A stretch of 25,989 nt of DNA from IMG/VR virus record IMGVR_UViG_3300037189_011105, positions 1-25,989 of that record. One strand, written 5' to 3'. Position 1 is the first letter of the stretch; each line of letters opens with the position of its first letter. The notes under the pieces were generated by a model. The model worked only from the letters and a program-made list of their open reading frames with translations. It was not told where the DNA came from and searched no databases. Made by a program: the position numbers and the translations under genes. Of this stretch, positions 10,201 to 23,798 are shown one piece after another. This DNA comes from a virus.

Positions 10201-12773
10201 TAATACATTTTACCTATCTCTTTACCATTAAGAGTTACTGTATGCTCGTTATCTTCATTCTTTTTGGTTTTAACTATATCTGTTCCACTTGTCATTGTCT
10301 CCGTTCCTTCGCCACCGGTAGTAACCTCAGTAGGACCACCACTTGTAGTAGCGGTAGCACCGCCTGCACCAATGGTAATTGTTGTGCCTTTAGCAGAAGC
10401 AGGAGTAGCTGTAACCTCAGGAGTAGACTCACTAACTGTAGCACTACTACCTGCTTGAATAGTTGTGCCTTCAGGCCTAGACTCAGCAGCTTTATGCGCC
10501 TCAAGCATTTTCTTGAAGTAGTCTAACGAAGCGACGTCATCCTCTGTTGGATTAGCTTCCTCTTCATAAAACTTAATCTTCTCCTCGTAATACTTTATAG
10601 GGTCAGCAAAGTAATCCTTAGCCTCTTGTACATCAGTCTCATCATGATTATCGGGGTTATCTAAGATTTCTTGGAACGCGTCTTTCTCATCAGCGATGGC
10701 TTGACTTTGTTCGGGAGTGATTTCAAGTTTGGCGTTTCCTTCGCCCACTTCTTGCAATCCCAATTCGGGTTGTTGGCCGAGTAGCACGCTTTCATTTGTT
10801 GTTTGCTTTTGAACGGCATCTTCTTTCTGTTTATTGGTTACTAATTCAGTTAACTCATTATTTAATTCTGCAAGTTTTGCTCTTTTCGCATCAATAAATG
10901 CTTTTATAGACGCTCTCTCTGAAGGTAATTTTGAATTTGTGAACTTATCTGACAAGTCACTCAGTTCAGCATCCAAATTCATTATCTCTGTATTCAGTTC
11001 TCTTTTTCTTGTGCCAAACGTAGAGTTATCATAAGCATCAGCAATAGCCGATATCTTATCAATTATCATCTTCTTCTCATTTGCTCCAAAGCTCTTATTG
11101 TTATTCATTAAATTAATAAGCGCGTCTCTATGCTCAACAATGTCATTGATTGTATTGTGAGCATCTATTTTATTTTGCAACTTAACAGCCTCATCTCCAA
11201 GCGTCTTCTTTTTTTGCATGTCAGGCTCCCTCAGTATTGCTTTTTTTATAGCATCTCTTGCGGTCATCATGGCTTGTATATCGTCCTGAGTAAGATTTGG
11301 GTCGTAAGATATATCAAGGTTCGCCTTAGTCTCATTTATGACTCTTCCAAGAGAGTTAATTGGATTGTCACTGAGTACGCTCTCATAGTAGTGGTTAGCT
11401 TCATTTTGGTTCTTATATATTGAACCTGCATGCAACAAACTAAAACCAACGCCAGTACCTGCCTCCATAATCATTTCTTCAGGCGTTAATGCTCTCCTTT
11501 CTGTAGCAGCAACTCTTAATGCCTTAGCTGACGTAAATACACCTGCATTTGCAAGTGGATTTGATATAGCCGTAGCTATAGCGCTATTAAGACCTGTCTT
11601 TGATATTAATTTAGCTATAGCAGGAGAGACCTCCCCTGCAGTTACACCAAGCACATGCATATACGCACCTTCAGCCGCTCCTTCTAATGCACCATATAGT
11701 GAGTTAACATATGGGTCTTCTCCTTCTTTAGTCTCAGCCATGCCTTTTATAGCACCTTTCGTTGCCATTATCTTAGTGAATGGAGAAGTGACTGATTCTT
11801 TTACAAGCTTTGTAGTTTTAGGTAAGTATTTTTCTACTACCTTAGCAGCTTGAGGAGAATATTTTTCAATAACGGGAACTGCTTTTTTAGTTGTTGTTTC
11901 AGCCCATTTAGCCGCTGCTGATTCAGCATATGCAGGATTGTCCATAGCTGCAGCCAATACCAAATCAGGAGCCATCCCTGCTATATTCTTAGTTATCTCA
12001 TAAGGTATCTTCATTACTCCTTCAGGAGCTACTTTTTGCTGATACTCCTCTATGTCTTTTAATTGGTCTTTTATATTTGAAGAGGCATTGGCAAGCGCTG
12101 TTATAGATTTTGTTTTTTGCTCTTGAGGTAAGACTGAATTGATTATCAAGCTTGATACATTACCAATTCCTTGCAATATCGCTCTTGGGTCAATAGGAGA
12201 CATATCTCCTCCCTTTTTCTTACTTAATTGCTCTAATTGGTTTTTTACAGCATCACTCGCAGGCTTATCTGTATCAGGAATATCTCCTCCAAAAAAATTG
12301 CTTTCATTTAATTGATTTTTAAATGCATTCAATACGTCATCAACAGGCTTTAAGAAACCTTCAGACCATATATTTGAGGCTATACCTGATACTGCATCTG
12401 CAACTTTCTTTGTACCAAGCATTGTATATGCCTGTGCTTTAAGTGCAGCATTGCCAATCTTAGATAGGATACCATCATCCTCAGTCTCTTGCGATGATGA
12501 CCCCGATGAAGCATCTGCCGAAGACGAACCCGAAACGACTGAATTTTTTTTTTCAACGGAAGGTTCAGTAGCCTTTATTTTGTTCAAAAAAGAGTCTATA
12601 GGAATATCTTTTGTAAACGAAGGGTCAATAGAACCTACCCATCCATGCATTTCCTTTGCATAAGAAGGGTCCTGCATTTTCTGAATGAATGTAGCGTATG
12701 GAACATCGGTTCCGTATGTTGAATCATTTTGCACAATCCAACCATATAGGTCTTTTAAATACTTCTCGTTCAT
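4242..12773 (-). CDS. Giant polyvalent virion/ejection protein (T7 gp16-like position)
   Basis: A 2843-residue protein, the last and longest gene of the virion block. Residues 1-67 hold a tandem repeat. Residues 100-460 include hydrophobic Ala/Gly-rich helices. About 500-780 is coiled coil. About 780-1480 is a mosaic of Thr/Ser-rich linkers with a GNAT-like domain (about 965-1072), a duplicated unknown module (about 837-905 and 1108-1180) and an ADP-ribosyltransferase-like domain (about 1198-1410). Long helical regions follow from 1480. About 2268-2525 resembles C-terminal domains of large polyvalent proteins and has a hydrophobic segment near 2497-2525. The tail is Lys/Arg/Tyr-rich. I infer that it is packaged in the virion and ejected with the DNA, by analogy with T7 gp16, which follows gp14 and gp15 in the same order. 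Polyvalent proteins of this design are known in phages and carry effectors that act at host entry. No transglycosylase motif was recognised. Its TAA stop overlaps the convergent gene's stop. Confidence 0.85.
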   Translation of the reverse strand: MNEKYLKDLYGWIVQNDSTYGTDVPYATFIQKMQDPSYAKEMHGWVGSIDPSFTKDIPIDSFLNKIKATEPSVEKKNSVVSGSSSADASSGSSSQETEDDGILSKIGNAALKAQAYTMLGTKKVADAVSGIASNIWSEGFLKPVDDVLNAFKNQLNESNFFGGDIPDTDKPASDAVKNQLEQLSKKKGGDMSPIDPRAILQGIGNVSSLIINSVLPQEQKTKSITALANASSNIKDQLKDIEEYQQKVAPEGVMKIPYEITKNIAGMAPDLVLAAAMDNPAYAESAAAKWAETTTKKAVPVIEKYSPQAAKVVEKYLPKTTKLVKESVTSPFTKIMATKGAIKGMAETKEGEDPYVNSLYGALEGAAEGAYMHVLGVTAGEVSPAIAKLISKTGLNSAIATAISNPLANAGVFTSAKALRVAATERRALTPEEMIMEAGTGVGFSLLHAGSIYKNQNEANHYYESVLSDNPINSLGRVINETKANLDISYDPNLTQDDIQAMMTARDAIKKAILREPDMQKKKTLGDEAVKLQNKIDAHNTINDIVEHRDALINLMNNNKSFGANEKKMIIDKISAIADAYDNSTFGTRKRELNTEIMNLDAELSDLSDKFTNSKLPSERASIKAFIDAKRAKLAELNNELTELVTNKQKEDAVQKQTTNESVLLGQQPELGLQEVGEGNAKLEITPEQSQAIADEKDAFQEILDNPDNHDETDVQEAKDYFADPIKYYEEKIKFYEEEANPTEDDVASLDYFKKMLEAHKAAESRPEGTTIQAGSSATVSESTPEVTATPASAKGTTITIGAGGATATTSGGPTEVTTGGEGTETMTSGTDIVKTKKNEDNEHTVTLNGKEIGKMYYDPSQKTWQNANFSRAGVKPYSVEWIYGDVLGESKQEAIDELVKRSKNPDKNIENNFFKIPEPNKNEKQEPQKEEPQKVQFVKDNILNRFLNKLNSLNPLQKNPIDNKSFVYGNKASLEFNRFDKRDRNEISIESILSLDKGKGTGKAVMKDITDAADALGVKLTLDAKPFGRDGLSKKQLIDFYKKNGFKVDFEDAFGGAFKTEQELIDYALENESEAVPMSREPKTRADVTSAEGTETKTGSWRYEFENTKIEDDGRGNLTVTLDGKPIGRMVIDKEFGNFVNADFNKAEAKPYTAKSFYGDVLGRTQEQAVNELLKRNSEAKRGDVTMAEGTETKTGGVDVEKELNNIAEKNPKLIANAASKVFEDAGYHVGNLQDKSDYATESYNGDMPFTGYYFVSDPNKVVGKESRKSTEKGFKIVDFSKYNLLKLTTPQYWVVKNALKRLATDLVKNKLTVEESIENNSRGYGYSQMLEYWMPEFLNKIKNTDFSSELKEYSKETSKDDYKTDRLETRILKKMGYEGVDVRDAKETADEASPDSFTEGSAIFDLKEGTVSTPAEAYNEALKVPEQERTEQQKQLVSSVNEALGTTIKTGSATVSEGKPTNVTMAEGNETKTSIMDDIELLIPKYKEYVDRDLNKAKDKLKVAKKNGNATKIEEAKKTLDKAKAAAEEYKAEVEAKKKEALKILTESNEYKTASQVQQDAMVKEVVRKFGERVKKAPSAETILGIEPPKVVTMTEKAALKEQIKAFGRGVKEGLKTAKDLMERRKVFAAAIKQIEKSGAISTKKVDALLNKISKVNLEDDAAVEKVIEYAEKLFEDAEYDNKLNDANGVRAAIKALASNKKKNAELSVFAKQFLKIRPSDVENIDEYNEMAKKLRESLEGSKITKDKNNPIKIADMIDIAKMGEYVDKMLEAQYKIDKDKLIKSARGIMGDDATFLSDDEVLELIKTGQVEGNTKVDDSLLKKITERVNKIFDSSAAMVDEMLRTGKDPLTGEDIDLSENRKKIAERFMSMDMRDLSDKEKLGVIDALNNFIRNGSVANMETVYADYKAKDSLAKAIENNVVAKKLKLFFSKKTGRAFGQQISTLPNLTEQMFRGVAASEEFKRLSGITELVNKKASVQRTMNVLTDSFIKQFYNQKANGKAFDTADNVAERGIIAAMKRDIPGTPEQQKAEFKRKKELVEKSIELLRDGTEQERKMADVYQKSYDKVLKDSNTVDEVLKKSDDKNIEAVDWWIDKWSDIYDQLADVSESIYNKKLDRDLNYTNFKFSLLSGGEKAPELSSRESVFLNSNNDIFGKGVYKKKTGVLEKSTRPEADGMEDRYFDLSFDRNMINAYQDALMDINTAGTVRQIESFFSSKAIKKIIPNKEDRDLLFRNSGKEGVIPDLIRTTRQRQVVVTDELTSVFRKLSNLGTAGAATALAGVTQPVKQTIPVAINTIINAGKMPDFFYFRNKDKVNFINNSQRGIAIRGGKSRVSVDSINKLAEAAATSKASKVIELLGKANEIALKAFVEKPDVWIAKASWITYYEKGLKKQGIDPSKFDYAKDKINEEAADYAQDMVDRQQNISDADLQGKLMNTKDPIKSVMVKTVMPFASFRMNQTMRMYSDLKSLFSKKGNATKEDRITAFKSLAGYGAEMATFKYTQYLIASYIGGLAVQAMGINETDDDKKKREEMLNKSQTTGTVTDVLSPLPVLDVPVAIGADKALSYFQDLEDIDEEDKFNLMTSFKQNGAKSLGLYGIAVDKANSIIDAFEIATTGKYTDEYGREKYVSRKTADALGDVALMSTGSSLIGFPAEMNAVLRNSLRLAKKNSSTKQGGKEAYTREVESKRADVLKKKEDKMKIEVEALNRMLEEETEPDKRKEIKLKIREAKEAPYKGKDQKEEEKMTRREEKEKLEEMLQGYDSKSDMKRYDPDLYEKTFGEGSDYYEKNNTEKEVKSDLTKEKKIIEDEEYDYSKRKKRKKNRDGTYKKSYYKSYFKRY
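8347..8436 (-). repeat. Linker repeat copy 4, with second shared linker motif
   Basis: Encodes 'GTTIKTGSATVSEGKP' followed by 'VTMAEGNETKTS'. The first part repeats 'GTTIQAGSSATVSESTP' encoded at 10411-10470, so the mosaic opens and closes with the same linker pair. It forms the C-terminal border of the ADP-ribosyltransferase-like domain. Confidence 0.7.
8540..9180 (-). other. ADP-ribosyltransferase-like domain inside the giant protein
   Basis: Residues about 1198-1410. Signs are 'TGYYFVSDPNKV' near 1250-1260, 'FKIVDFSKYNLLKL' after it, 'TRILKKMGYEGVDVRD' near 1372-1386, and 'GSAIFDLKEGT' at the end. This order (a G-x-YF-x-[SD] strand, a D-x-S-K-Y-N-L strand, a late GY-[ED]-G-[IV] and a final [IV]-[FY]-D strand) resembles the ART-type toxin domains found in phage polyvalent proteins. 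I cannot assign the catalytic triad with certainty. Base composition is much more AT-rich than the flanks (about 27%, one 60-base stretch near 15% by hand count), which suggests a later arrival. Confidence 0.5.
9184..9224 (-). repeat. Linker repeat copy 3 (AEGTETKTG type)
   Basis: Encodes 'GDVTMAEGTETKTGG'. The surrounding 60 bases are about half G+C, while the ADP-ribosyltransferase-like domain directly after it is about 27% G+C by hand count. It forms the N-terminal border of that domain. Confidence 0.75.
9232..9450 (-). repeat. Duplicated unknown module, copy 2, in the giant protein
   Basis: Second copy of the ~65-residue module with the conserved 'YGDVLG' core and a 'LLKRN' ending. The two copies differ at many residues, so the duplication is old or the copies were gained separately. 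It is bounded on both sides by linker repeats 2 and 3, like a removable cassette. Confidence 0.75.
9474..9516 (-). repeat. Linker repeat copy 2 (AEGTETKTG type)
   Basis: Encodes 'ADVTSAEGTETKTGS'. Its DNA is close to copy 3 over some 40 bases, with about six differences by eye, which is closer than the protein context needs. It separates the GNAT-like domain from copy 2 of the duplicated module. Confidence 0.75.
9558..9885 (-). other. GNAT acetyltransferase-like domain inside the giant protein
   Basis: Residues about 965-1072. The strand 'ISIESILSLD' leads into the Gly-rich loop 'KGKGTGKAVMKDI' (about 996-1008), which matches the acetyl-CoA pyrophosphate-binding motif [QRK]-x-x-G-x-G of GNAT enzymes. 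Next come 'GVKLTLDAKPFG' and the C-terminal GNAT signature 'LIDFYKKNGFKVDFED'. An active fold is plausible. The substrate is unknown; a host protein modified after ejection is one possibility. Confidence 0.75.
10058..10264 (-). repeat. Duplicated unknown module, copy 1, in the giant protein
   Basis: A module of about 65 residues with 'VTLNGKEIGKMYYD', then 'ANFSRAGVKPYS', 'YGDVLGESKQEAIDELVKR'. It aligns along its whole length with copy 2 at 9232-9450 ('VTLDGKPIGRMVID', 'ADFNKAEAKPYT', 'YGDVLGRTQEQAVNELLKR'). It looks like a small alpha+beta domain with no recognised function. A Lys/Glu/Pro-rich spacer ('NEKQEPQKEEPQK') separates it from the GNAT-like domain. Confidence 0.75.
10291..10330 (-). 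repeat. Linker repeat copy 1 (AEGTETKTG type)
   Basis: Encodes 'GGEGTETMTSG' at the end of a Thr/Ser/Gly-rich stretch. It matches the cores of the copies at 9474-9516, 9184-9224 and 8347-8390. The local GC content is around 45-50% by hand count, well above the modules on either side. It marks the boundary before the first copy of the duplicated module. Confidence 0.7.
12573..12773 (-). repeat. Tandem duplication of a ~33-residue module at the N-terminus of the giant protein
   Basis: Residues 1-34 and 35-67 align as two copies: 'YLKDLYGWIVQNDSTYGTDV' with 'YAKEMHGWVGSIDPSFTKDI'. These are followed by 'YATFIQKMQ' with 'IDSFLNKIK'. Shared features are a Gly-Trp pair, a spaced Asp, and a Phe-[IL]-x-K ending. 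I infer a small helical repeat that could be a docking or packaging signal for loading the protein into the virion. Confidence 0.75.
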
Positions 12774-12794: not shown

Positions 12795-14684
12795 TTATTT
12801 GCCTCCCGGTCTTGGTGCAGGTGTTTTCTTCACCGGCGCAGGCGCAGGCGCAGAAGCAGGAGTCGGCTCAGCCTTTGCTTTTTTATCAGGATTGCTTTCA
12901 AAAAAGTTTTGAGCTTCTGTTGCATTTGCATTTTGAGACAACCAATTTAAAATGTTTTTAACTTGTGATTTATCATCTACAGAAAAAGTAACACCCTTTT
13001 CTTTTGATATGTCCTGTCCTTTCTTGTATATAATAATGTCATCTGTAGTTCCAAGTGTGCTTTCATCAGCCTCAAATGTAAATCCAAGACCACCAAATGT
13101 AGAGTTTAAATTAGATGCAGTTTCTGTAGCTTTATTTGGCATTATCTGACTGTCTAAGCTTGAAGACACATACTCATTTATGTCTTTAGTATAAGACTTT
13201 TGCCCAGTCTCTTCTGAGCCAATTGCTTTTCCGGGTTTATTTACAGTTTTCCCTTGAGAGAACTCTCTCGCATACTTAACAGCGTCTGTCTCATCAATTT
13301 GAGTGTCTGAAATATACTTTTTAGCATATCCCATGATACTTGATATAGCGCTTCTTACCTCATCAGGTGTTTTAGGAGCAAACTGAACATATTGCCCATC
13401 TGGTCCCATTACGTTGAAAATAGGATTCTTGTCTGCGTCTTCTGTTATATAGTTAGAAATGCCTATTTTATTTAAATAATTACTTGCATCACTTTGCTCG
13501 TTAACGCTACCTGTAAAGAATTTTCCTACGTTCTCTCCAAGATTTTTAGCGCCTTGCTCTTCTTTTTTAACTCCATATTCAAACTGCTTTCTTCCAAGTG
13601 TAACATCACTTAATTGACCTGTAGATGATTGAATTTTTTTCTCTACATCAATCTTGCTGATTATTTGGTTTCTTGCATAATCAAACGCTTCTTGTCTCTG
13701 CTCTTTATAATGAGGACCATTAGGGTCTATTACATTTAATCCTGTTGATGGGTCAACCATTGCCAATATTTTAGTCTTATCTTTTGCCGCCAACTCCTTA
13801 TCATAAGTATATGATTCAGCGCCATACTTACCTGTATTTTGAGTTAGTATAGACATCATGTTGTATGGCACAGATAAATACTTTTCTACGTTATTATCTA
13901 TTGACCTTAAGAACTCGTCAGCAGCTTTTTTACCCCCCGGAAAAGTCTTCTCCATCATCTCAGGAGAGTTTAAATATTCAGTAACGCTACCTGCTCTTGA
14001 CATTTTAGCCGCTTGCAAAACAGCCGTTCTTAAAGCTCCCTTAGATTCAGCGTCCCTTGTAGTATTGCCATCTAAATCAAACGTAGGTATATCTGTCTGC
14101 ATATTCTTCATGCCTGTACCAACAGGAATAATTTCTCCTGTAAGTTCCATTAGTCCCGTCTTCTCATTTTTTTTCATCTTGGCTAAATTGATAACCCCTG
14201 TTGCAGGGTCTACAACAGCTTTTGAATTAGAGAAATCAGCATACGCTTCTATTGTAGACATATTAAAAGCATTTACAGCCTGAAGGGAATTGTCTGTTAT
14301 TCCTTTCATTTTTTTTGCGTATTCGCTTTGATATGTTTTTTGAAGATCAAATAACGTGTTTGTCCCATCTAATATATTGTTGTTAATTAAATTAATTTGC
14401 TTTTCACTTATTTTGCCTGCTTTAAAAAGTTTCATGGCAATTTGTTTTTGCTTAGTAATAGCATCAACGGCATTACTCGTAAATGCATTACCATCCCTAT
14501 ATTGGCCCATAGGAGAATTAGCCAATGTTTGAGAAAGTTTTCTATCTCTCTCTTCAATACCAGCTTTTCTGTTCTCCCTATCCTTTATATCGGCATCAAT
14601 AACGTCAGTAAATCCTTTTGCGACTGACGCCCAATCCACATAACTTGAATTTTCTCTTGATTGATATCCGTAACCTATTGGCAT
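12795..14684 (-). CDS. Internal virion/ejection protein, T7 gp15-like by position
   Basis: A 629-residue, mainly helical protein with no recognised enzymatic motif. The N-terminal 130 residues are charged helices ('DWASVAKGFTDVIDADIKDREN'-type), and the middle is mixed. The C-terminal 25 residues are Ala/Pro/Lys-rich ('TPASAPAPAPVKKTPAPRPG'), a flexible tail. It lies between a small Gly/Ala-rich membrane-prone protein and the giant last gene. The T7 internal core proteins gp14, gp15 and gp16 have the same order and relative sizes. I infer that it is packaged in the head or tail and forms part of the channel built at DNA ejection. The assignment is by gene order and character, not by direct similarity. 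Confidence 0.65.
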   Translation of the reverse strand: MPIGYGYQSRENSSYVDWASVAKGFTDVIDADIKDRENRKAGIEERDRKLSQTLANSPMGQYRDGNAFTSNAVDAITKQKQIAMKLFKAGKISEKQINLINNNILDGTNTLFDLQKTYQSEYAKKMKGITDNSLQAVNAFNMSTIEAYADFSNSKAVVDPATGVINLAKMKKNEKTGLMELTGEIIPVGTGMKNMQTDIPTFDLDGNTTRDAESKGALRTAVLQAAKMSRAGSVTEYLNSPEMMEKTFPGGKKAADEFLRSIDNNVEKYLSVPYNMMSILTQNTGKYGAESYTYDKELAAKDKTKILAMVDPSTGLNVIDPNGPHYKEQRQEAFDYARNQIISKIDVEKKIQSSTGQLSDVTLGRKQFEYGVKKEEQGAKNLGENVGKFFTGSVNEQSDASNYLNKIGISNYITEDADKNPIFNVMGPDGQYVQFAPKTPDEVRSAISSIMGYAKKYISDTQIDETDAVKYAREFSQGKTVNKPGKAIGSEETGQKSYTKDINEYVSSSLDSQIMPNKATETASNLNSTFGGLGFTFEADESTLGTTDDIIIYKKGQDISKEKGVTFSVDDKSQVKNILNWLSQNANATEAQNFFESNPDKKAKAEPTPASAPAPAPVKKTPAPRPGGK

Positions 14685-14695
14685 GTGTTTTTATT

Positions 14696-15586
14696 TTAAA
14701 ACTTAAAGTAATTGTAAGCATCCATCCAATTTGGAGTTTTAAATCCCGAACCAAGTTTAGAGCCTTCGTTGAAATTTGTATTATTATACATCTGTTGCTC
14801 CGCAAGAGATTTCCAAGAAGGCATTGTCTGAAAAGAACTTACATTTAATTTAGATGATGGAACTTGTTGGGCCCCTGATGGTTTTTGTACATTTGGTATA
14901 CTTGAAACTTGACCTTGATTATCAGTTTTATTTGTATCATTCCCTTTCCCTCTTCCAATAATCAATGGCACTTGCCCAAGACCATACTCCAGTGCTTTTG
15001 CTCCGGTCTGATATCCTTGTTGTATAGCCATAGCTCTTGCTTTAGCAGCGTCTTCAGACTGTTTATTATATCCTTCAGCTTCTGATAAACTAATTTGTGC
15101 CAAATTCGTTTTGATTTTAGCATCTTCTTCAGCGCTCATCTTCTCAAGGTTTAATAAATCAGCATTAAGAGCATCTCTTTGAGCGCCTTGAGCTTCATTT
15201 TGAGCCAATTGAATACGTCCTGCTGTAGCTGCTGCGCCTCTGTCTCCTTCTTGACCTGCCGCTATAGCCTGAGCTCCTTGAGCAAGTAACGCTTCTCTTT
15301 CTCTTTCGTAAGCCTCTTTATTGATACCAAGCGCATCGAATGGATTAATGTTTATTTGTCTTTTAGCTTCTTCAAGCGCCTTTGTGGCATTTTGTTCGGC
15401 TTCTCTTTGCAACTTCATTTGTTTGCTTGCCTGAATAAAAGATGTAGCAGCAAGGCCCGTAGCAATTAATCCTCCTATAGGCCCCCCTGTTGCAAGACCT
15501 GTGGCAATTCCTGCGCCTGCGTTAGCTAATGACGCTGCTGATGCAGGGTCTTGTGCTCCTGTTGCGTTTCCTGTTGATGCTCCCAT
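14696..15586 (-). CDS. Internal virion/ejection protein with hydrophobic Gly/Ala segment, T7 gp14-like
   Basis: A 296-residue protein. Residues about 18-52 are a long Gly/Ala/Ile-rich hydrophobic stretch ('GAGIATGLATGGPIGGLIAT') able to insert in a membrane. Residues 52-210 are an Ala/Gln/Glu-rich helical coiled region. The C-terminus (210-296) is polar and looks disordered. This plan, a membrane-prone glycine-rich N-terminus followed by helices, is that of T7 gp14-type ejection proteins that open the outer membrane. It starts two bases after the GNAT-like gene stop. The next gene, the candidate gp15 equivalent, follows after 11 bases. Function is inferred. Confidence 0.7.
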   Translation of the reverse strand: MGASTGNATGAQDPASAASLANAGAGIATGLATGGPIGGLIATGLAATSFIQASKQMKLQREAEQNATKALEEAKRQININPFDALGINKEAYEREREALLAQGAQAIAAGQEGDRGAAATAGRIQLAQNEAQGAQRDALNADLLNLEKMSAEEDAKIKTNLAQISLSEAEGYNKQSEDAAKARAMAIQQGYQTGAKALEYGLGQVPLIIGRGKGNDTNKTDNQGQVSSIPNVQKPSGAQQVPSSKLNVSSFQTMPSWKSLAEQQMYNNTNFNEGSKLGSGFKTPNWMDAYNYFKF

Positions 15587-15588
15587 AA

Positions 15589-15999
15589 TTATAAATATTT
15601 AATAAGTTCCTCTGTATATGACGCACTCTTTATATAACCAAGTTTCTCGTATGTTTCAACTAGACCTTTATTGTCCATTAAAGAGTATGCATATTTGTAT
15701 CCTAAATTTCTTGCAATATTTGTAAGTGTCATTATAAGCAATGATACTGACTCTTTTCTTTCAGGCTTTTTTCTGTAAGTTTTGCTTGATATAATCCAAT
15801 CAACCCAAGCTATTTTAGAATTTGTGCTATACAAAAAACCTGCACAAATCGGTTCATCTTCATCCACAATCATACACCCCCCAATTCCATTGTCAGGTAA
15901 GAAGTCTTTAGATGGAGGAGTAAACCCCCAATCCTTCCACCAACCTACAAGAATGTCATCGTAATCTGAGCTATTTAGTATTCTTACATCTAAAGCCAT
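15589..15999 (-). CDS. GNAT-like N-acetyltransferase family protein, stand-alone
   Basis: A 136-residue protein with GNAT layout. It has an N-terminal 'VRILNSSDYDDI' strand-helix, then 'CMIVDEDEPICAGFLYST' (strands), 'IAWVDWIISS' (central strand), a helix 'ESVSLLIMTLTNIARNLGY', and the C-terminal signature 'GLVETYEKLGYIKS'. The segment at the acetyl-CoA pyrophosphate loop is 'RKKPERKES', without the usual Gly-x-Gly, so catalysis is doubtful. GNAT-like genes are often seen among the tail genes of related phages, where their role is unknown. A promoter-like box lies just upstream of its start. It may lead a unit with the three ejection protein genes. Confidence 0.8.
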   Translation of the reverse strand: MALDVRILNSSDYDDILVGWWKDWGFTPPSKDFLPDNGIGGCMIVDEDEPICAGFLYSTNSKIAWVDWIISSKTYRKKPERKESVSLLIMTLTNIARNLGYKYAYSLMDNKGLVETYEKLGYIKSASYTEELIKYL

Positions 16000-16022: not shown

Positions 16023-16847
16023 TTAAGGAAAACTTTTCATGACCTCTGAGCCAACTCCAAACAATTCAATCTTGCTTGACGAGCCATTGGTTATGTCAAA
16101 CACGCAGTAGTGACCTAATACTCCATGAGATTCAGCAACTGAGTTTTTAACTGTGAAAAAGTAGTCGTCATCGTCCGGTATGGAAACAGTTCCCGGAGGA
16201 GTTGTATCTATAACTAATTGGTTTATTCCTGCAGGATAATTTTGAATTATATTTGACACCACGCCTGCAAAGAATGTTGTTGTATAAGCAGGAGGTATAG
16301 CAAAATAAACGCTATCTCCAATACTAACAACTCCTCCTATTGATATTAGCGGCACAATAGAGAAGTTTACCTCTGTATAACCTGCTTGTATATCTCTACT
16401 TATACTTCTGCCTATTCCCGTAACCGCTCTTGTAGACAATTCTCCTGAAGCATCATTTCTAATAAACGCAAAGAATGTCTGCTCTTTCTTTTCAAACCAC
16501 GTTGATGTAATAAATCCTGAGTTCTGAAGGTCAGTTACCAATGTAGCATCCCACTTAGAGTCTCCTTGCAGCACAATGGTTTTAAAAAGCTTGTTCTCAA
16601 GAACTCCTTCGTTGATAACGCCAACTAACCTTGTCGGAACAAATGGACCGGGGGGAGGCGGAACTAAAAATTTGTCATACCACTGCTGATAGAAAGTATT
16701 TCTGCTTTCATTCACATTGTGTTTATAAAGGTCTCCGCCTTTAAATGTGTACAGGTAGTTGTTCATCCCTATTATCCAATCAGGATAAAAAGAGTAGAAT
16801 GACGGCCAACCTTTTGCGCCTTCACTATATGTTAATGTATATGACAT
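16023..16847 (-). CDS. Tail/virion structural protein of the crAss-like neighbourhood
   Basis: A 274-residue, beta-rich protein with no membrane segment or signal peptide. The N-terminus, with 'YSEGAKGWPSFYSFYPD' and 'GMNNYLYTFKGGDLYKHN', is a pattern I associate with proteins encoded beside the large tail protein in crAss-like and other Bacteroidota phages. A proline run (PPPP in 'FLVPPPPGPFVP') separates it from the C-terminal beta-rich part ('FEKKEQTFFAFIRN'), which contains a 'DDDDYFF' segment. It probably attaches to, or completes, the tail assembly formed by the 1474-residue protein two genes upstream. The exact role is unknown. Confidence 0.7.
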   Translation of the reverse strand: MSYTLTYSEGAKGWPSFYSFYPDWIIGMNNYLYTFKGGDLYKHNVNESRNTFYQQWYDKFLVPPPPGPFVPTRLVGVINEGVLENKLFKTIVLQGDSKWDATLVTDLQNSGFITSTWFEKKEQTFFAFIRNDASGELSTRAVTGIGRSISRDIQAGYTEVNFSIVPLISIGGVVSIGDSVYFAIPPAYTTTFFAGVVSNIIQNYPAGINQLVIDTTPPGTVSIPDDDDYFFTVKNSVAESHGVLGHYCVFDITNGSSSKIELFGVGSEVMKSFP

Positions 16848-16859
16848 AGTTTATTATTT

Positions 16860-17435
16860 TTATTTTTCACACCCACAACTATCGAATCCTATAAATCCTA
16901 TACCTGAAATAACTGTTGGTGTTGTATTATTTTTACAACAAAAAGTTGATCCGTTATATGCAAAATAAACATTTTGCTCAATGCCTGAACAATTTATAAA
17001 TGAAACTCCAAGTATACCTTCAATACCAAATACTACATATCTATTGCAATCTTGACTACAGCAACCACAAGTTTGATAATGAACTAAGTCTGCCTTACCA
17101 AATATTATATCAGGCGTTGTGCCATATACTACACATAACGACTCATCAAAAGGGCCTGTAAATGTTTGCTCAACAACTGCTTGTTCTGCGCAACTTTCAT
17201 ACCTAACCGTTACCGTTCCTAACAAAGCAGTAATAGTCCATCCTGAGCATGGGTCTGAGCAACATGCTGTGCATATCTGCTCAGGTAAAAGAACGCATTC
17301 AACTTGCTCTCTTGTTACGATGCCATCAGAATAAAATCCGTTAGGAGAACAAATAGTAAGTGCTGCATCGTCAAACACAGCAGTCGATGAACTTAAAGAT
17401 GGTCCGTTGATGTAAAAAGGTTGTGTATATGGCAT
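16860..17435 (-). CDS. Cysteine-rich virion protein with two tandem beta modules
   Basis: A 191-residue protein with 17 cysteines (about 9%). Residues 1-63 ('FDDAALTICSPNGFYSDG', then C-x2-CC-x3-C) resemble the starts of tail-associated proteins of Bacteroidota phages. Residues 64-130 and 131-191 are two copies of one module. Each has a strand pair ending Y/F-x-[SN]-C, a second Cys after about 17 residues, TTP, and a final Cys-Gly-Cys. The cysteines could bind metal or form disulfides once the virion is outside the cell. No signal peptide is present, as expected for a virion protein. It lies between two tail genes, so a tail-surface or tip role is inferred. Confidence 0.7.
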   Translation of the reverse strand: MPYTQPFYINGPSLSSSTAVFDDAALTICSPNGFYSDGIVTREQVECVLLPEQICTACCSDPCSGWTITALLGTVTVRYESCAEQAVVEQTFTGPFDESLCVVYGTTPDIIFGKADLVHYQTCGCCSQDCNRYVVFGIEGILGVSFINCSGIEQNVYFAYNGSTFCCKNNTTPTVISGIGFIGFDSCGCEK

Positions 17436-17446
17436 ATATTTATTTT

Positions 17447-20400
17447 TTAAGCTCCACTAATACAATCGCAACAAGATGCAATTGGGTCATTTTCGCTATA
17501 ACATAATTGAACAGGAACAGAATCTCTCAAATCCCATATCAAATACAATGTATCTCCATCTACCGTATCAGGCGTAGAAAACTCTGCATAGTTTACATTG
17601 TATATTGTTACATTTGGACTTGCCACACTTGATGCTGCAATCATTGCACTAATATCAGAAACATTATTTTCATACAGAGTATTTGTTCTAAGGTATCTAA
17701 ACTTATCTGATGCAGGGTCAAATACATAATCATCATCTCCTATCTTGTTTGTTTGTATTCTAACTGTGCTTCCTTGCGTAGGGAATGAGCCTGCTCCTGC
17801 AAATCCTGAAATCAAACTATACCAAGAAACAAGAGGGTTCTCTGTACCTGATAAGAATGTTACAAGATTAGATTGTGTTGGTCCAACAAAAGAACCTACA
17901 TCATATCTGTATTCTGCATGTATTGTCTTTTCTGAATCGTAATTATTGGTAAGTACAACTTGAACTACCTTCATAGCCTCAGGTGTAGGGCAATTAACAG
18001 TTACATCTAAAACGACGTTGCCTGAATGTTCAATTTCAATTTGAACTGTGTCTACATAGTTAAGGTTTTTATTAAACGTAAGGCTGTCGCTAAAATCTAT
18101 AAACCCTGAAGTAAAATCATTTCCATTATAAAATGCTGTAACTTTAAAATCTTCCCCTGAATCAATGCTTACTACTGTCCATACTATATCAACAGGTCCA
18201 ACAAGAGCACCTAAGTTTACACAATAGTTTTGTGTTGTATTCCCTGACAACGTAAATGTTTGAGATGTACCACAAGCCAAGCATGATGGGTTGTTTGACA
18301 ACTCTCTATCAGTCATGCATAACACATACTCATTCATGTATGGGTCAAACCCTCCAAGTTTCTGAGTAGAGAATGACGCATTGAATGTATCTCTAAACCA
18401 TGTCCTCATGTTCAAATCTGAGATTACATTTAACTGCTCATTAGAATATGAGTTACCTTGAAGCTGAATTACTGCTCCTCTTTTGGCATCTGTAAAGAAC
18501 CTATCGTAACCCCATTGTACATAGCTCTCAGGATTGAAACTAATGCCGTATTTTTCGGTTCTTGCAATCTGTGTACCCAACACCTCAGGAACTGATGAAA
18601 TAGCTCCTCCTGCGGCTGAATCAGACAGCAAATTCTTACCTGCTAATACATAGGATATTTTATCCTCTTGCAAAACAAGCACGTCAGTTTCTCTTCCGTC
18701 CATTTTGTATATCTCTCCAAAAGAAATCTCTAAAGCCTTATAGTTAAGCAATCCTGAGTTAAACTCATTTAGCTTATTTAAATTGGTCTCAGGATTATAA
18801 ATACCACTATAAGTAATGTCAGCAAATCTATCTGACTCTTTATAATCTTGAGCAGCAACTGTAGTTACTCTATTCCCTAAATTAAAAGAACGTCCTGAAA
18901 TAGAGTCTCTTATTTTATAACTCTCTACACCATTTCCAAAAGCAAAGCAATTAAAGAATTGAGTATCAACTATACCGGGAGTATTTGTAGCAATATCTTG
19001 ATTTTGAATATTGCCCATGTGATTACCATCTGCATCAACTTCAAAAGACAAATCATTCTCAAAAAACACATCAGGCAAAGCTTCGTCAGGTTCTGTTTCA
19101 AATACAAATACGGTATCTGCTCTAAATACTTGAATGTCTAATATTATTGACGATGCTCTTGCTGCAGTGGGTCCGCAAGACTGAACGGCGCTTATGCATA
19201 AACTAAGTCTATTATTTGACTCTCTGCACCATTGCCAATGATTTGTATCAAAAGTATATCCAATAAATATTGGGCTAGCTAACAATGCAGTAAAATATTC
19301 ATTTCCCACCGGAGTAGCTCCAGATCCAACAGTAGAAGTGCCATTATTTATAAACTCTTTTATATTATCTCCATTCCACCAATCTCTCATATCATTATAC
19401 GTAGTGGAAGAAATAAAAGTTTGAGACCAAGTATATATTCTTTTTTCGCAACTCCTATTGCCATCTCCCGGGCCTAATCTCTGAGTGGTTATATTTATGC
19501 TAATTTTGCTTCCTGCAGGAACGGTATAATCAACCCAAACGCCGGGAGATGTTTCCGTATTCATATCGTATGACATTATAGGGAATCCTCCATTTAATGC
19601 AGTCTCTGTTTTAGTTCCGGGAGAAATTATAGCGTATGGGTCATCTGTTACCGAAAATGAGTTTGGATTTATTTTCATGTATACGCCACCGGGAGGAGTA
19701 ACTCCTGTAACAGGCTCAATAAATCCTTTTATTTTTGACTCTATCTCAAGCACAGTAGCATATACGCAAGTTTGCGTTGGGCCATTAGAGTCTCTTTTAA
19801 CAATAAACCTATCTCCACGTTCCACCTTTCTTGCATTTTCTCCTTCAAGAAGAAAATATACTGCATTATCTGTTGGGCTAGAAAAAAATATGCTTGAGTA
19901 TATAGTATCGTAATTCTCTTGGTCAGGCTTAATTACAAACTTATATCTCTTTGCCCAATAAGGAGCGACTTGTGAAGTTGGTATAGTTACATAAATAGAG
20001 TTCTTTGTATCTGAATTTGAACATGGCACATACTCTGTATTGTTCAAACTTACTAATGCTGTACTTGACCTGTTAAACTCATCCATATAAACAATACCAA
20101 TCTCGTAACCCCTATTGCTATGCAAGCTTTTTGGACTTGCTATTTCTTGGAATGTAGCACTTGCCGAAGTGACACTATAATACTCAAAAGCATAATCAAC
20201 AGGAGTGGTAAGGTTATCTACGTACTGCATAGCAATCATTTGGAAACCTATAATCTTACTTCCCGGACTTGTTATTATTTTAATAGGCTGACCCAATCCT
20301 GATATACCACTTGCATATTTTTCTAACGCATCTAAATTTTGAGGTAGTGCACAATTAAGCTTGTCTGTAAATGTAAACCCATTGCAAGGGTTTGTAAGGC

Positions 20401-21871
20401 CTGCAGGATCATATACAGGAAGTATATTAGCAAGAGTACCAACGGCATTTTGAAACTCGGCGCTTGTTGCCATCTGATAAACAGATGTATAATCTTGAGA
20501 AAGTGTAAAGTAAAAAGAAACATTTACGTTTGATGTTGTTTCTGCAGGAGTTAAAGGTCCTGAGAATGATTCATGCGTAATCGTTATGTCTAATGAAAAT
20601 GACGCTCCATTTTTTAAATTTGGCTCAACTGATATAAAATCTACATTTACTACTGAATTAGGAACTACAACACTTCCATTGACAGTATAAGCATCGCCTG
20701 TTGTTGTATTATCAAAAAGCAATGTATCTCCTATTATTTCTGTAACAAGACTTGTTTGATAATTAAGGCTTATTGTCCTTCCTGTTTTGTCAATCAAATC
20801 GTATCCTTCAACATAGTTTCCATACATAAGCCTATTACCCATAATGGTCTGAGCCTTTGCGAATCTTGGAACATTATCAAATAATCTTAAAAGTTCAGAT
20901 TCAGGAAGTATTGTGAATATTTTGCTATTATCAAAATAGTATTGATAATTAGTATCGTCATTTAACCCCAAATCTTTCTTATCAAGCTTCTCTATAATTT
21001 TTATTATATTGTTATTGGCTTGCTTAAAAAGTAAATCCACACCCACTACAAGCGGACCTCCTGTATTGTATGTAATCCTTGCAGCATTACAAAGATTCAC
21101 CATTCCCTCATTCAAGTAGCTGTTTATGCTAAACTCAAAATTCTGAGGAAGAAAAGCAGGAGCAGACCATTGAGATGTAGCAGAATATTCGCCATCGGCA
21201 TATCTATATCTATAAGCAAAGCAAATGAATCTTGTATCCATATAGTTTTGCTGACCACCTGTAACTATAGGTTCAGCTCCGGGAGACTCAATAGGAGGCT
21301 TCTTAACTACAAGTAAACACTCTGCGCTAAATTGATCTATAGACGCTACAGGATTTGGATACCTATTCGTAGTTGGTTTTACATTGAAAAATCTTGGAGG
21401 GTTATAATCATCCGTAAAAAATATCAAATTCTCTATCTTATCAACCCCTGTAATTAAATACTGCGGATTAAAATTCAATGTAGTAGCTAAACCTGACCCA
21501 TCGTCTGTACTTATTATATGATAAGTCAATATACCTGTAAGTACATTTAAGGAAACTATCATATCTAATTTACCTGTTAGACTATCTCCTCCAAAGGTTG
21601 AGTCGTGAACAAACCAATAAATAGTTTCGTTTGCGCTATCGGCTATTGCGCCAATGCAAATCGCATCTGTACTTAATGGCGTGCCATCTATATATGTTAG
21701 AGCAGTTAAAGCTAAATTACCCTTTGAATTTTCAATGGCGCCAATCTCGGAGTTCTCTGTAGAACCCATACGTACATTCATGGCATCTATGTATTCTCCA
21801 TTTGGGATTACACGTTGGTCATAGACCTTATTCATTCTGCCTGCTAAGAAATTCCTTGTAAGATTTGCCAT
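17447..21871 (-). CDS. Large tail protein, crAss-like 'stabilization/muzzle' type
   Basis: A 1474-residue, beta-rich virion protein. The N-terminus 'NFLAGRMNKVYDQRVIPNGE' followed by 'YIDAMNVRMGSTENSEIG' matches the start of the large protein called stabilization protein in crAss-like phages. Repeated short blocks with 'NIIFFTDD', 'NRLMYGNYVEGYD' and 'YDRFFTDAKRGAV' suggest a beta-propeller core like that of short-tail nozzle proteins. After about residue 1200 come Ig-like beta segments with paired cysteines ('CLACG', 'CCDC' near the end). It follows the two ring/adaptor genes by one base. It most likely forms the distal tail tube or muzzle through which DNA exits. There is no sign of a depolymerase or peptidase motif. 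Confidence 0.8.
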   Translation of the reverse strand: MANLTRNFLAGRMNKVYDQRVIPNGEYIDAMNVRMGSTENSEIGAIENSKGNLALTALTYIDGTPLSTDAICIGAIADSANETIYWFVHDSTFGGDSLTGKLDMIVSLNVLTGILTYHIISTDDGSGLATTLNFNPQYLITGVDKIENLIFFTDDYNPPRFFNVKPTTNRYPNPVASIDQFSAECLLVVKKPPIESPGAEPIVTGGQQNYMDTRFICFAYRYRYADGEYSATSQWSAPAFLPQNFEFSINSYLNEGMVNLCNAARITYNTGGPLVVGVDLLFKQANNNIIKIIEKLDKKDLGLNDDTNYQYYFDNSKIFTILPESELLRLFDNVPRFAKAQTIMGNRLMYGNYVEGYDLIDKTGRTISLNYQTSLVTEIIGDTLLFDNTTTGDAYTVNGSVVVPNSVVNVDFISVEPNLKNGASFSLDITITHESFSGPLTPAETTSNVNVSFYFTLSQDYTSVYQMATSAEFQNAVGTLANILPVYDPAGLTNPCNGFTFTDKLNCALPQNLDALEKYASGISGLGQPIKIITSPGSKIIGFQMIAMQYVDNLTTPVDYAFEYYSVTSASATFQEIASPKSLHSNRGYEIGIVYMDEFNRSSTALVSLNNTEYVPCSNSDTKNSIYVTIPTSQVAPYWAKRYKFVIKPDQENYDTIYSSIFFSSPTDNAVYFLLEGENARKVERGDRFIVKRDSNGPTQTCVYATVLEIESKIKGFIEPVTGVTPPGGVYMKINPNSFSVTDDPYAIISPGTKTETALNGGFPIMSYDMNTETSPGVWVDYTVPAGSKISINITTQRLGPGDGNRSCEKRIYTWSQTFISSTTYNDMRDWWNGDNIKEFINNGTSTVGSGATPVGNEYFTALLASPIFIGYTFDTNHWQWCRESNNRLSLCISAVQSCGPTAARASSIILDIQVFRADTVFVFETEPDEALPDVFFENDLSFEVDADGNHMGNIQNQDIATNTPGIVDTQFFNCFAFGNGVESYKIRDSISGRSFNLGNRVTTVAAQDYKESDRFADITYSGIYNPETNLNKLNEFNSGLLNYKALEISFGEIYKMDGRETDVLVLQEDKISYVLAGKNLLSDSAAGGAISSVPEVLGTQIARTEKYGISFNPESYVQWGYDRFFTDAKRGAVIQLQGNSYSNEQLNVISDLNMRTWFRDTFNASFSTQKLGGFDPYMNEYVLCMTDRELSNNPSCLACGTSQTFTLSGNTTQNYCVNLGALVGPVDIVWTVVSIDSGEDFKVTAFYNGNDFTSGFIDFSDSLTFNKNLNYVDTVQIEIEHSGNVVLDVTVNCPTPEAMKVVQVVLTNNYDSEKTIHAEYRYDVGSFVGPTQSNLVTFLSGTENPLVSWYSLISGFAGAGSFPTQGSTVRIQTNKIGDDDYVFDPASDKFRYLRTNTLYENNVSDISAMIAASSVASPNVTIYNVNYAEFSTPDTVDGDTLYLIWDLRDSVPVQLCYSENDPIASCCDCISGA

Positions 21872-21872
21872 T

Positions 21873-22796
21873 TTATTTTATTGTCTTGTCCATACCCCTA
21901 AGATTCATTAATAGTCTACCGGGATGAATATTACTCATTCTTATTTTTGCATTTCTAAGTAAAGCACCCCTCTCTTTTCTTGCTCTATTTACAACATACT
22001 CTTGCACACCAAATTTAGAATTTAATAACTCAAATCTAATGGCTGCATAAATATACTGCTCAAACAATTTATTAACCGTAACTAAAGAGTTATCTCCATT
22101 CTCCATGCCATCAGAAATATACTCAAGAATACAAGTCTGACCTGCCATTCCTGAGTCAAAGTTAATAACACCATTCTTCTTATCAATATTAAACGTAGGA
22201 TTAAAATTAGCCGTTTCTGTATTCAATCCATAAGCAGCACCTATGCCATAATCAAAGTACCACATACCGTCTACATACCATCCCCATTGGCCATTAAACT
22301 GATGTCCTTCGTTAAGATATATACTCTTCTTTGTTCTGTGTATTCTATCGTAGTCAATATTTGAGTCTTGAGGTCTTAAGATATTCCCAAATTGGTCAAA
22401 TAATATGTTGCCTTGATTGTCCTGAAGGTAAGCATTTGAAGATAGAGTTTGAATATTCTCAGTCAATGGCCTTAAGTATCCATCCTTGTAAAGAGATATT
22501 CTAACCCAATTAACAAAGTCAGAAGGCAATACATATCTGAGAGAATCAACTACTGATAACTCAAGAACTTTAATTTCTTTGAATGCATCGTAATTCAATT
22601 CCTGTATTGCTCTTTTAGCATGGAATAGTATTTTATACTTCTTTTCATTATTTACTAAAGAGTGATTTCCAGTATGCATCAACATGAAGTTGTTGACTAT
22701 ATCAAACAAGCTAACATATTGGTAAGAACCCCAATTTGCATCTTGGGGTGTATTACCTGAGTTTGCATAGTATTGATAATCTGATATATATGCCAT
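21873..22796 (-). CDS. Ring/tail-adaptor virion protein (T7 gp11 / crAss ring type)
   Basis: A 307-residue protein. The helical N-terminus (about 25-70, ending 'HAKRAIQELNYDAF') is followed by 'VVDSLRYVLPSDFVNWVRIS', a beta segment with the LP-x-D pattern seen in tail-tube/ring proteins that sit between portal and nozzle. The middle is Tyr/Trp/Gly-rich ('FNGQWGWYVDGMWYFDYG'), and the C-terminal helix carries many Arg. It is one base from the large tail gene and six bases from the other adaptor gene, so the three are surely co-translated. The role is inferred from order and pattern. Confidence 0.7.
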   Translation of the reverse strand: MAYISDYQYYANSGNTPQDANWGSYQYVSLFDIVNNFMLMHTGNHSLVNNEKKYKILFHAKRAIQELNYDAFKEIKVLELSVVDSLRYVLPSDFVNWVRISLYKDGYLRPLTENIQTLSSNAYLQDNQGNILFDQFGNILRPQDSNIDYDRIHRTKKSIYLNEGHQFNGQWGWYVDGMWYFDYGIGAAYGLNTETANFNPTFNIDKKNGVINFDSGMAGQTCILEYISDGMENGDNSLVTVNKLFEQYIYAAIRFELLNSKFGVQEYVVNRARKERGALLRNAKIRMSNIHPGRLLMNLRGMDKTIK

Positions 22797-22802
22797 TGTC
22801 TA

Positions 22803-23798
22803 TTATTGTTGTTGACTGAATGTTGGTTGTTCGTGTTGCTCTTGAGCCATTGCAAATTGAGTAACCTCGCTCTCACGTATAGAAACACCACAATATTGTA
22901 AAATCTTCATTACTAATTTAAACTCATCTTCTTGAGGCAATTCAAAATCTTGATAGTCAGGTTGAGATTGGTCAAACACAGGCTCGCCTGCAGCAAGTGT
23001 AATATAAGTCCATTTTGGCTCCTTAGGATATCTAAAGTAAGCGCATTTAACTTGACCCAATAAACCAAGCGTAAATGTTGTAGAGAATGGGTACAATTGA
23101 ATCAAAGTAGAGTCTTGAGTATAAGCAGGAAACATACTGCTTGGTGCTGTTAGATTAGAAAGATTAAGGCTTGTAATCTTGCCTGTACTTACTTTTTCAG
23201 ACTCTACATAGTTCTGAGCAGATACGATATAATAATCATCTCCTGTAGAAGTAAATATATCAGCACTTAAAAATAATTCTGTGTCTGTAAGAACTTCATA
23301 GACAGTTGCAAGCTGAGGAGGAGCTGCGCTCCAATTAGCAACTATATCTCCGGCTTTAACACCATCTGCTATAAATGTTGCTGTACTATCTATTAATCTA
23401 AATGCCGAAACGCCATCATTGAAGCTATTGTCTTTTAATATTGTTGGATAACAAACCAATCTATTAATCATGTACGCCTCATTGCCTGTAGTCGTAAGAG
23501 ATGGTATATAAAATCTGTTTCTTGTTATACTTGGCAAATCGTAATTAAAAGGCTTTAAGAAATCATCAACAAAAAAATACTCCATCGTTTCTCCAATTGC
23601 CTTATTGATATCAGCATAATCGCTTCCTGATGTACGAATATTCTCAGCAGTAACAGTTTTATTATAGTTACTAAAGTATTCTTCGTAAGCTTCCAATTGC
23701 GCTTGCTTTGCATAAAGATTAAAATCGGATGGAGATATATATCCGTAGTTATTTTTATTAAGCACAGACAGCACTGTGTTTCTAACCGAGTTTATCAT
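22803..23798 (-). CDS. Ring/head-completion adaptor virion protein
   Basis: A 331-residue protein. The first 70 residues are helical ('SPSDFNLYAKQAQLEAYEEY'), a common opening of adaptor proteins in Bacteroidota phages. They are followed by beta segments ('DGVKAGDIVANW') and a helical C-terminus ending in a Gln-rich tail. It is the first gene after an intrinsic terminator, and it has its own promoter-like box 14 bases upstream of the ATG. It therefore probably heads a tail operon with the next genes. It may bind under the portal, which lies outside the window. No enzyme motif is visible. Confidence 0.65.
   Translation of the reverse strand: MINSVRNTVLSVLNKNNYGYISPSDFNLYAKQAQLEAYEEYFSNYNKTVTAENIRTSGSDYADINKAIGETMEYFFVDDFLKPFNYDLPSITRNRFYIPSLTTTGNEAYMINRLVCYPTILKDNSFNDGVSAFRLIDSTATFIADGVKAGDIVANWSAAPPQLATVYEVLTDTELFLSADIFTSTGDDYYIVSAQNYVESEKVSTGKITSLNLSNLTAPSSMFPAYTQDSTLIQLYPFSTTFTLGLLGQVKCAYFRYPKEPKWTYITLAAGEPVFDQSQPDYQDFELPQEDEFKLVMKILQYCGVSIRESEVTQFAMAQEQHEQPTFSQQQ

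What the first reader, a model, noticed from the sequence alone, without database searches (positions are those of the whole stretch)
16860..17435. Virion protein with 17 cysteines in two repeated 60-residue modules
A 9% cysteine content is extreme for a cytoplasmic phage gene. Paired CC and CGC motifs recur in both modules, and similar cysteine pairs occur near the C-terminus of the neighbouring large tail protein. They may form disulfides after release and harden the tail tip, or bind metal.
Basis: partly seen in the sequence, partly recalled or inferred. Interest (0 to 1): 0.5.

Follow-up and report, generated by a model that had tools for sequence, protein, structure and literature searches.

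The report
Cysteine-rich tail-tip protein in split muzzle
In an uncultured short-tailed virus of bacteria, the gene for the tail-tip gate is broken in two and a small protein crammed with paired cysteines sits in the gap, probably as a disulfide-stiffened, swappable piece of the tip that meets the host cell.

Summary
In detail: ORF 16860-17435(-) has 17 Cys in 191 aa and two tandem repeats (67 and 66 aa), preceded by a separate 58-aa domain. The gene lies between the two halves of a split crassvirus-type muzzle (tail-tip gate) gene: 17447-21871 and 16023-16847 (Pfam crAss_MUZ_C). In phi38:1 both halves are one protein with 5 residues at that junction. Of the 80 best relatives found through the C-terminal half, 74 have a gene with the same N-terminal domain in the gap, 5 carry that domain in the large part's tail, 1 is truncated. 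What follows the domain varies. The same Cys repeats occur in large-part tails and, in two contigs, before the C-terminal half. Sixteen of 17 Cys are invariant across the window and five homologs (41-47% identity). C29 and C47 are both present in 79 and both absent in 68 of 147 distinct domains, never single. Best reading: a disulfide-stapled, exchangeable tail-tip module that contacts the host. Location is well supported, disulfides inferred from co-variation, receptor role inferred. Against: the large half does not match crAss001 gp44 by sequence, and tree support for repeated Cys-pair switches is weak.

The parts
16860..17435 (-). the Cys-rich protein (191 aa, 17 Cys), middle gene of the split muzzle cassette
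   Evidence: homologs at the same place
17262..17435 (-). N-terminal domain, residues 1-58: conserved docking-type module (docking inferred); C29/C47 pair and C55-x-x-C58
   Evidence: alignment A2; 147 distinct copies
17061..17261 (-). Cys module 1, residues 59-125; Cys 59, 63, 82, 101, 123, 125
16863..17060 (-). Cys module 2, residues 126-191; Cys 126, 130, 149, 166, 187, 189, plus private Cys 167
17447..21871 (-). large N-terminal part of the split muzzle (1474 aa, 22 Cys)
   Evidence: phrog_14478 E 1.4e-211; homologous to the unsplit phi38:1 and elemo proteins that also carry the crAss_MUZ_C region; no significant profile match to crAss001 gp44
17450..18316 (-). tail of the large part, residues 1186-1474: not aligned to phi38:1 or elemo, present in the split-muzzle relatives; ends in LC-x9-CC-x-C
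16023..16847 (-). C-terminal part of the split muzzle (274 aa)
   Evidence: Pfam PF25729 crAss_MUZ_C E 8.6e-11; 18 of 18 members of alignment A3 hit it; A3 profile matches crAss001 gp44 from residue 1199, E 1.2e-12 in a one-sequence search
21873..22796 (-). neighbouring virion protein (307 aa), probable tail-ring protein by position
   Evidence: phrog_13977 virion structural; name inferred from synteny
22803..23798 (-). neighbouring virion protein (331 aa), probable tail-ring protein by position
   Evidence: phrog_14543 virion structural; name inferred from synteny
15589..15999 (-). GNAT-like protein next to the muzzle C-part
   Evidence: Pfam Acetyltransf_1 E 0.0092, below cut-off; syntenic homologs in many loci

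Best explanation
The ORF encodes the middle piece of a three-gene tail-tip (muzzle) complex in a crAss-like podovirus lineage, probably of Bacteroidota. In this lineage the muzzle polypeptide is cut at one loop, the one that corresponds to about residue 1197 of crAss001 gp44. The break holds an added tail domain on the large half plus a separate protein. That protein docks through its conserved N-terminal domain and displays exchangeable domains, here two tandem beta-strand modules held by disulfides. Likely bonds are C29-C47, C63-C82, C130-C149, C101-C123 and C166-C187; the remaining conserved Cys (55, 58, 59, 125, 126, 189) sit at domain borders, where they could staple neighbouring domains or chains. 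The bonds would form after the virion leaves the reducing cytoplasm. The exposed loops vary and probably contact the host surface, whose binding triggers opening of the muzzle gate. Shown: gene place, conservation, modularity, Cys co-variation. Inferred: disulfides and their pairing, docking, surface exposure, host contact, host group.
For: Split muzzle: the large part aligns to phi38:1 gp097 up to residue 1072 and the C-part from 1078 (elemoF 1238 and 1260), so 5 residues separate them where the window has 290 residues plus a 191-aa gene. Place: homolog directly after the large part in 36 of 36 loci (one of them the window's identical twin contig), C-part next in 31, 4 contigs ending first, 1 (L030) without it nearby; in the 80 best loci found with the C-part profile, N-module gene in the gap in 74, N-module only in the large part's tail in 5, 1 truncated (72 distinct C-part sequences). 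Exchange: gap gene of 62-71 aa (N-module alone) in 4 loci, up to 640 aa in L146; Cys modules in large-part tails of 42 and gap genes of 15 of 80, and fused before the C-part with Pro-Thr linkers in L239 and L240; Fib_succ_major in the L120 gap gene (E 5.4e-37) and the L043 large-part tail (E 2.3e-30), Lcl_C below cut-off in the L043 gap gene; Ig/cadherin-like domain in the tail region of the phi46:3 large part. Disulfides: 16 Cys invariant in window plus 5 homologs; C29/C47 79 both, 68 neither, 0 single of 147, seven disjoint pairs 75-89% identical elsewhere differing at both; model mean pLDDT 88.2. Diversification, window against L009: Cys modules 36.9%, muzzle core 79.9%, C-part 80.1%, ring protein 92.5%. 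Precedent: crAss001 tail hub and ring proteins joined by disulfides (passages read).
Against: No structure, proteomics or redox data. A profile of 18 large parts (17 relatives and the window) does not match crAss001 gp44 significantly (E 0.3 for the sequence, top of 201 with 200 shuffles but close to them), and Pfam crAss_MUZ does not hit the large part, so the muzzle identity of the large half rests on its being one chain with the crAss_MUZ_C region in phi38:1 and elemo. On the N-module tree C29 and C47 each need 11 changes, but of 11 independent pairs only 1 lies on well-supported branches, so the sign test has no power. Co-loss of the second and third module Cys is essentially one clade. 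Model pTM is 0.47 and no Cys distances were available. No PDB fold match above Z 4.0, Foldseek none at E 0.001. Fib_succ_major occurs in 1 of 70 gap genes. Faster divergence can also mean relaxed constraint. No cultured relative with this gene was found. The C-part profile itself was built mostly (17 of 18 rows) from phages that have the N-module gene.
Confidence: 0.6

Rival explanations
1. Pure structural staple: the protein is a clamp that re-joins the two muzzle halves and stiffens the complex by intra- and inter-chain disulfides, with no role in host recognition.
For: Cys clusters at domain borders on both partners (LC-x(6-14)-CC-x-C in 70 of 79 large parts; C55-x-x-C58-C59 here); four relatives consist of the N-module alone; crAss001 tails use inter-protein disulfides.
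Against: What follows the N-module is exchanged for unrelated domains, including Fib_succ_major and Pro-rich arrays, and the Cys modules are the least conserved part compared. The N-module alone would suffice for clamping.
Confidence: 0.23
2. Metal-binding (for example zinc) Cys clusters.
For: C-x-x-C and C-x(3)-C spacings; CC and CGC clusters.
Against: The two Cys sets that vary do so in twos, not fours; 8 of the 12 module Cys lie on or within two residues of predicted strands' ends; Pfam with E up to 5 listed no family for the protein.
Confidence: 0.07
3. The split and the extra gene are sequencing or assembly errors in one muzzle gene.
For: In phi38:1 and elemo phages the halves are one ORF.
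Against: The split recurs in all 80 contigs and in annotated MW202828.1, with the gap gene in 74 of 80; in phi38:1 only 5 residues lie at that place.
Confidence: 0.01

Closest known systems
crAss001 gp44 muzzle (Structural atlas of a human gut crassvirus, PMC10172136; passages read)
   Same: Tail-tip gate; the window C-part is over the cut-off of Pfam crAss_MUZ_C and its family profile matches gp44 from residue 1199; the authors propose cell-surface contact and note length variation by insertions.
   Different: gp44 is one chain with 10 Cys in 1371 aa. Its reported insertions are in the crass and IG2 regions (IG2 region ends at residue 1021), whereas here the added material lies at about 1197 and includes a separate Cys-rich protein. 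The large half shows no significant sequence match to gp44.
Podoviridae sp. ctfjg026 MW202828.1, UOF82484.1 'putative glycosidase'
   Same: Same gene order and same N-terminal domain, 37.9% over 58 residues; its muzzle large part ends in one Cys module.
   Different: No tblastn match beyond residue 58; no Cys modules in this protein; C29/C47 both absent.
BACON-domain tandem repeats of crAssphage (review PMC10136315, passages read)
   Same: Variable domains on virion proteins near the tail, thought to bind the cell surface.
   Different: No BACON family listed for the window protein or 70 gap genes; that BACON is not Cys-based is recalled.
DGR-diversified tail proteins of crAss-like phages (PMC12386605, abstract and passages)
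   Same: Fib_succ_major/Lcl_C domains in some relatives; their lectin-like fold and link to DGRs are recalled, not from a call.
   Different: No reverse transcriptase match in the two contigs tested; the Cys modules matched no lectin fold confidently.

Membership tests
Crassvirus muzzle (for the flanking genes) | Pfam crAss_MUZ_C over its curated cut-off in the C-part | tested here: met
   42.6 bits against cut-off 27; 18 of 18 A3 members match at E 0.01 or better
Crassvirus muzzle (for the flanking genes) | Pfam crAss_MUZ (main muzzle model) in the large part | tested here: not met
   No family listed at E 5 for the window's large part; the unsplit phi38:1 and elemo proteins, which carry crAss_MUZ_C, do not hit it either, so the model does not reach this branch; 6 of 18 C-parts hit it at E 0.01
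Crassvirus muzzle (for the flanking genes) | Sequence homology of the large part to crAss001 gp44 | tested here: inconclusive
   Profile of 18 large parts against gp44: E 0.3 among gp44 plus 200 shuffles
Order Crassvirales (for the phage) | Placement inside the order on hallmark-gene trees | not tested
   Named relatives examined are Pachyviridae, Pervagoviridae and Elemovirus, listed under Caudoviricetes without that order; Crassvirales families listed, Pachyviridae
Any Pfam or PHROG family (for the 191-aa protein) | Profile match | tested here: not met
   PHROGs 0 at E 1, Pfam 0 at E 5. NCBIfam was run on 70 gap genes of relatives only: 2 families, 1 member each; PHROGs on those 70: phrog_21885 in 3, phrog_5624 in 1, both undescribed
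Disulfide-stabilised domain | Even, conserved Cys set changing in pairs | tested here: met
   16 conserved Cys; C29/C47 never single in 147; second/third module Cys single in 1 of 163. Independence on the tree is weak
Disulfide-stabilised domain | Sulphur-sulphur distance about 2 angstrom | not testable with these tools
   No model coordinates in the box
BACON domain | Pfam BACON match | tested here: not met
   No such family listed
Known folds in PDB | Confident structural match | tested here: inconclusive
   Best Z 4.0, 62 residues, rmsd 2.6; Foldseek best E 0.069

The most novel reading that the evidence does not exclude
The break in the muzzle is a docking port for exchangeable host-contact cartridges: one conserved 58-aa plug carries whatever binding domain the phage needs, in cis (fused to the large half) or in trans (a separate gene). 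The Cys-rich version matures only after lysis, by oxidation. The virion as a whole is redox-polarised: tip proteins gain cysteines, while the proteins encoded after the muzzle, which by analogy with crAss001 cargo must unfold through the tail, are purged of them (141 of 141 distinct homologs, some partial, of the window's 296-aa protein have none, 0 Cys in 34,980 aa).
Probability: 0.35. Interest if true: 0.68.

Novelty: new variant of a known kind. Interest (0 to 1): 0.52.

Why it matters
Crass-like phages are very abundant, and how their tail tips find and open a cell is not settled. This locus shows where an environmental branch places exchangeable tip domains, gives two domain families without a described Pfam or PHROG match in the window protein and with a clear cysteine code, and offers a testable link between tail-tip oxidation after lysis and infectivity.

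Tried and rejected
Metal-binding, pure staple and assembly error are treated as rivals. A diversity-generating retroelement was considered because of Fib_succ_major and Lcl_C domains; no RVT_1 match in the two contigs tested. PDB sequence searches with window proteins and with profiles A3 and A11 gave nothing convincing. Fold searches gave no confident PDB match for the Cys protein; BFVD gave 7 matches at E 0.001 or better, all without a name. A relative with the common long domain (L010, pLDDT 90.1, pTM 0.76) resembles beta-sandwich ectodomains at Z up to 8.3 (SIDT1) and a collagen-binding domain at Z 7.5, Foldseek none at E 0.001; the tool warns that such Z may be only a common arrangement, so no function is drawn. 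First/last module Cys co-occurrence was uninformative (152 both, 6 first only, 3 neither of 161). Genome contigs with the N-module found no relative; with the C-part 17 loci, most from metagenome bins of mixed and partly unlikely hosts, so host is not inferred from them. A module of L024 found no annotated phage and the protein no plasmid. Mixed alignments A6 and A7 put modules out of register and were not folded; A9 was not folded either. Literature: no paper on a cysteine-rich crass-like tail protein or a split muzzle was seen in the listings, nor on cysteine lack in ejected proteins; the library is open-access only and most listed papers were not opened.

Limits of the counts: the 80 loci are the best of at least 588, include contigs already met and near-identical ones (72 distinct C-part sequences), and 17 of the 18 rows of the query profile come from phages with the N-module gene. 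The N-module set collapses 275 instances to 147 distinct after dropping copies with more than 12 gaps, leaves out the window's twin contig, contains 6 second, degenerate copies, and was partly gathered with patterns that favour C or I at position 29 (none includes position 47). The module set drops copies with more than 15 gaps. One search counts include ORFs cut by contig ends.

Full report
What is there. The window is a whole 25,989-base virus record; an identical protein lies in a 59,969-base IMG/VR contig. ORF 16860-17435(-) encodes 191 aa with 17 Cys. The other 20 ORFs that I took as genes hold 0.61% Cys, so about 1.2 would be expected. Residues 59-125 and 126-191 are a genuine repeat: score 81, reached by 0 of 2000 shuffles, and by 0 of 2000 with the Cys fixed. 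Residues 1-58 are not part of the repeat.

Where it sits. Upstream is a 1474-aa protein matching phrog_14478, virion structural. Downstream is a 274-aa protein over the cut-off for Pfam crAss_MUZ_C. In phi38:1 and elemo phages the two are one protein: the large part aligns up to residue 1072 and the small one from 1078 in phi38:1, 1238 and 1260 in elemoF, and those proteins carry crAss_MUZ_C. A profile of the small part matches crAss001 gp44 from residue 1199. The window therefore has a muzzle split at one loop, with 290 extra residues on the large half and a 191-aa gene in the gap. The gaps between the genes are 11 and 12 bases, so the three look like one operon (inference). Against this naming: the large part has no match to the main Pfam muzzle model and a profile of large parts no significant match to gp44; its muzzle identity comes through phi38:1 and elemo.

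How general it is. All 36 loci found with the N-terminal region (one is the window's twin contig) have the gene directly after the large part; 31 show the C-part next, 4 contigs end first, 1 (L030) lacks it nearby. I then searched with a profile of the C-part: at least 588 relatives, best 80 kept. This is a different handle but not a blind one, since 17 of its 18 rows come from phages that have the gene. All 80 have a separate C-part ORF; 74 have an N-module gene in the gap (3 of them two), 5 have the N-module in the large part's tail and no gap gene with it, 1 is truncated. Among 17 loci in genome assemblies, 6 (L241-L246) have an N-module gene before the C-part, L239 and L240 have Cys modules fused to the C-part, and the others, among them Aquimarina and Myroides isolates, have neither. 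The three cultured phages examined are unsplit (phi38:1, elemoF) or split without the gene (phi46:3). In the annotated phage collection tblastn finds the N-module only in MW202828.1.

Modularity. After the N-module come two Cys modules (window and eight others including L088), a long domain (33 aligned in A11; beta-rich in the L010 model), proline repeats (L030), Fib_succ_major (L120), Cys repeats of another kind (L146, 47 Cys) or nothing (L136, L138, L140, L149). The Cys module, 163 distinct copies, occurs in 42 large-part tails and 15 gap genes of the 80, and in front of the C-part in L239 and L240 with Pro-Thr linkers. phi46:3 has a Big_9/cadherin-like domain at residues 1366-1453 of its 1612-aa large part. 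One junction thus hosts many extracellular-type domains, in cis or in trans.

Cysteine chemistry. Sixteen of 17 Cys are invariant in the window and five homologs at 41-47% identity, making 16 of the 38 invariant columns. C29 and C47: 79 both, 68 neither, 0 single of 147 distinct domains; seven disjoint pairs 75-89% identical elsewhere differ at both positions at once. On the N-module tree each trait takes 11 changes; of 11 independent pairs only 1 lies on well-supported branches. In the module, the second and third Cys are both present in 148, both absent in 14, single in 1 of 163, essentially one clade; the fourth and fifth are nearly invariant (160 and 161 of 163). AlphaFold gives mean pLDDT 88.2, pTM 0.47, strands only; strands 63-70/74-81 and the stretch 130-147 would set 63 against 82 and 130 against 149 (geometry inferred from strand limits). 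Pairwise change argues for disulfides over metal, but it is not proof.

Divergence. Window against L009: ring 92.5%, muzzle core 79.9%, C-part 80.1%, N-module 72.4%, added tail domain 57.6%, Cys modules 36.9%; against L080 the modules are 34.6%, N-module 63.6%, C-part 71.5%. A fixed Cys frame with fast-changing loops fits a surface under selection by hosts; relaxed constraint is not excluded.

Mechanism. Likely order: the three chains assemble at the tail tip in the cytoplasm; lysis exposes them to oxidising surroundings; disulfides lock the modules and perhaps neighbouring chains; the modules touch the host surface, and movement passes to the muzzle gate. In crAss001 the muzzle is thought to be a gate that contacts the cell, and other tail proteins are disulfide-linked (passages). 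Every step here is inference.

Side result. Homologs of the three proteins encoded after the muzzle, which I take as cargo by position, are nearly Cys-free: 0 in 34,980 aa (141 distinct ORFs), 11 in 52,288 aa (101) and 6 in 40,981 aa (30), against 3.9% in the gap-gene family; crAss001 gp45-47, 49 and 50 hold 7 in 7478 aa, while its tail hub gp38 has 11 in 215. Cargo must unfold to leave the tail, so stray disulfides would be costly; this is my inference, and homology of the window's proteins to crAss001 cargo was not tested.

Verdict. Real, conserved and placed at the tail tip; a new variant of the crassvirus-type muzzle with two domain families that the window protein does not share with Pfam or PHROGs; among 70 gap genes of relatives, Pfam, PHROGs and NCBIfam each list 2 families, in 1 to 3 members.

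Noticed in passing
window 4242-12773, 12795-14684, 14696-15586: The three ORFs after the muzzle block (3768 aa) have no Cys at all; 141 of 141 distinct homologs of the 296-aa one are Cys-free, and crAss001 cargo proteins are also strongly depleted.
   Followed up: partly
window 15589-15999: A GNAT-like acetyltransferase gene follows the muzzle C-part in many relatives, including phi46:3 and an Aquimarina longa contig, inside a virion gene block.
   Followed up: no
L146:6062-7984: Gap gene of 640 aa with 47 Cys, carrying tandem repeats of the type YNCVSGTCIDPGDGSGTY, a second kind of Cys repeat.
   Followed up: no
L120:6098-7984; L043:1710-6989 and 6992-7933: Fib_succ_major and weak Lcl_C domains in the gap gene or the muzzle tail, without a detectable reverse transcriptase in those contigs.
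   Followed up: partly
L239:7029-8792; L240:3321-5246: Cys modules joined by long Pro-Thr linkers and fused in front of the muzzle C-part.
   Followed up: no
L028:2146-6834: Muzzle large part broken into two ORFs with a gap of about 165 bases; L030 shows a similar break.
   Followed up: no
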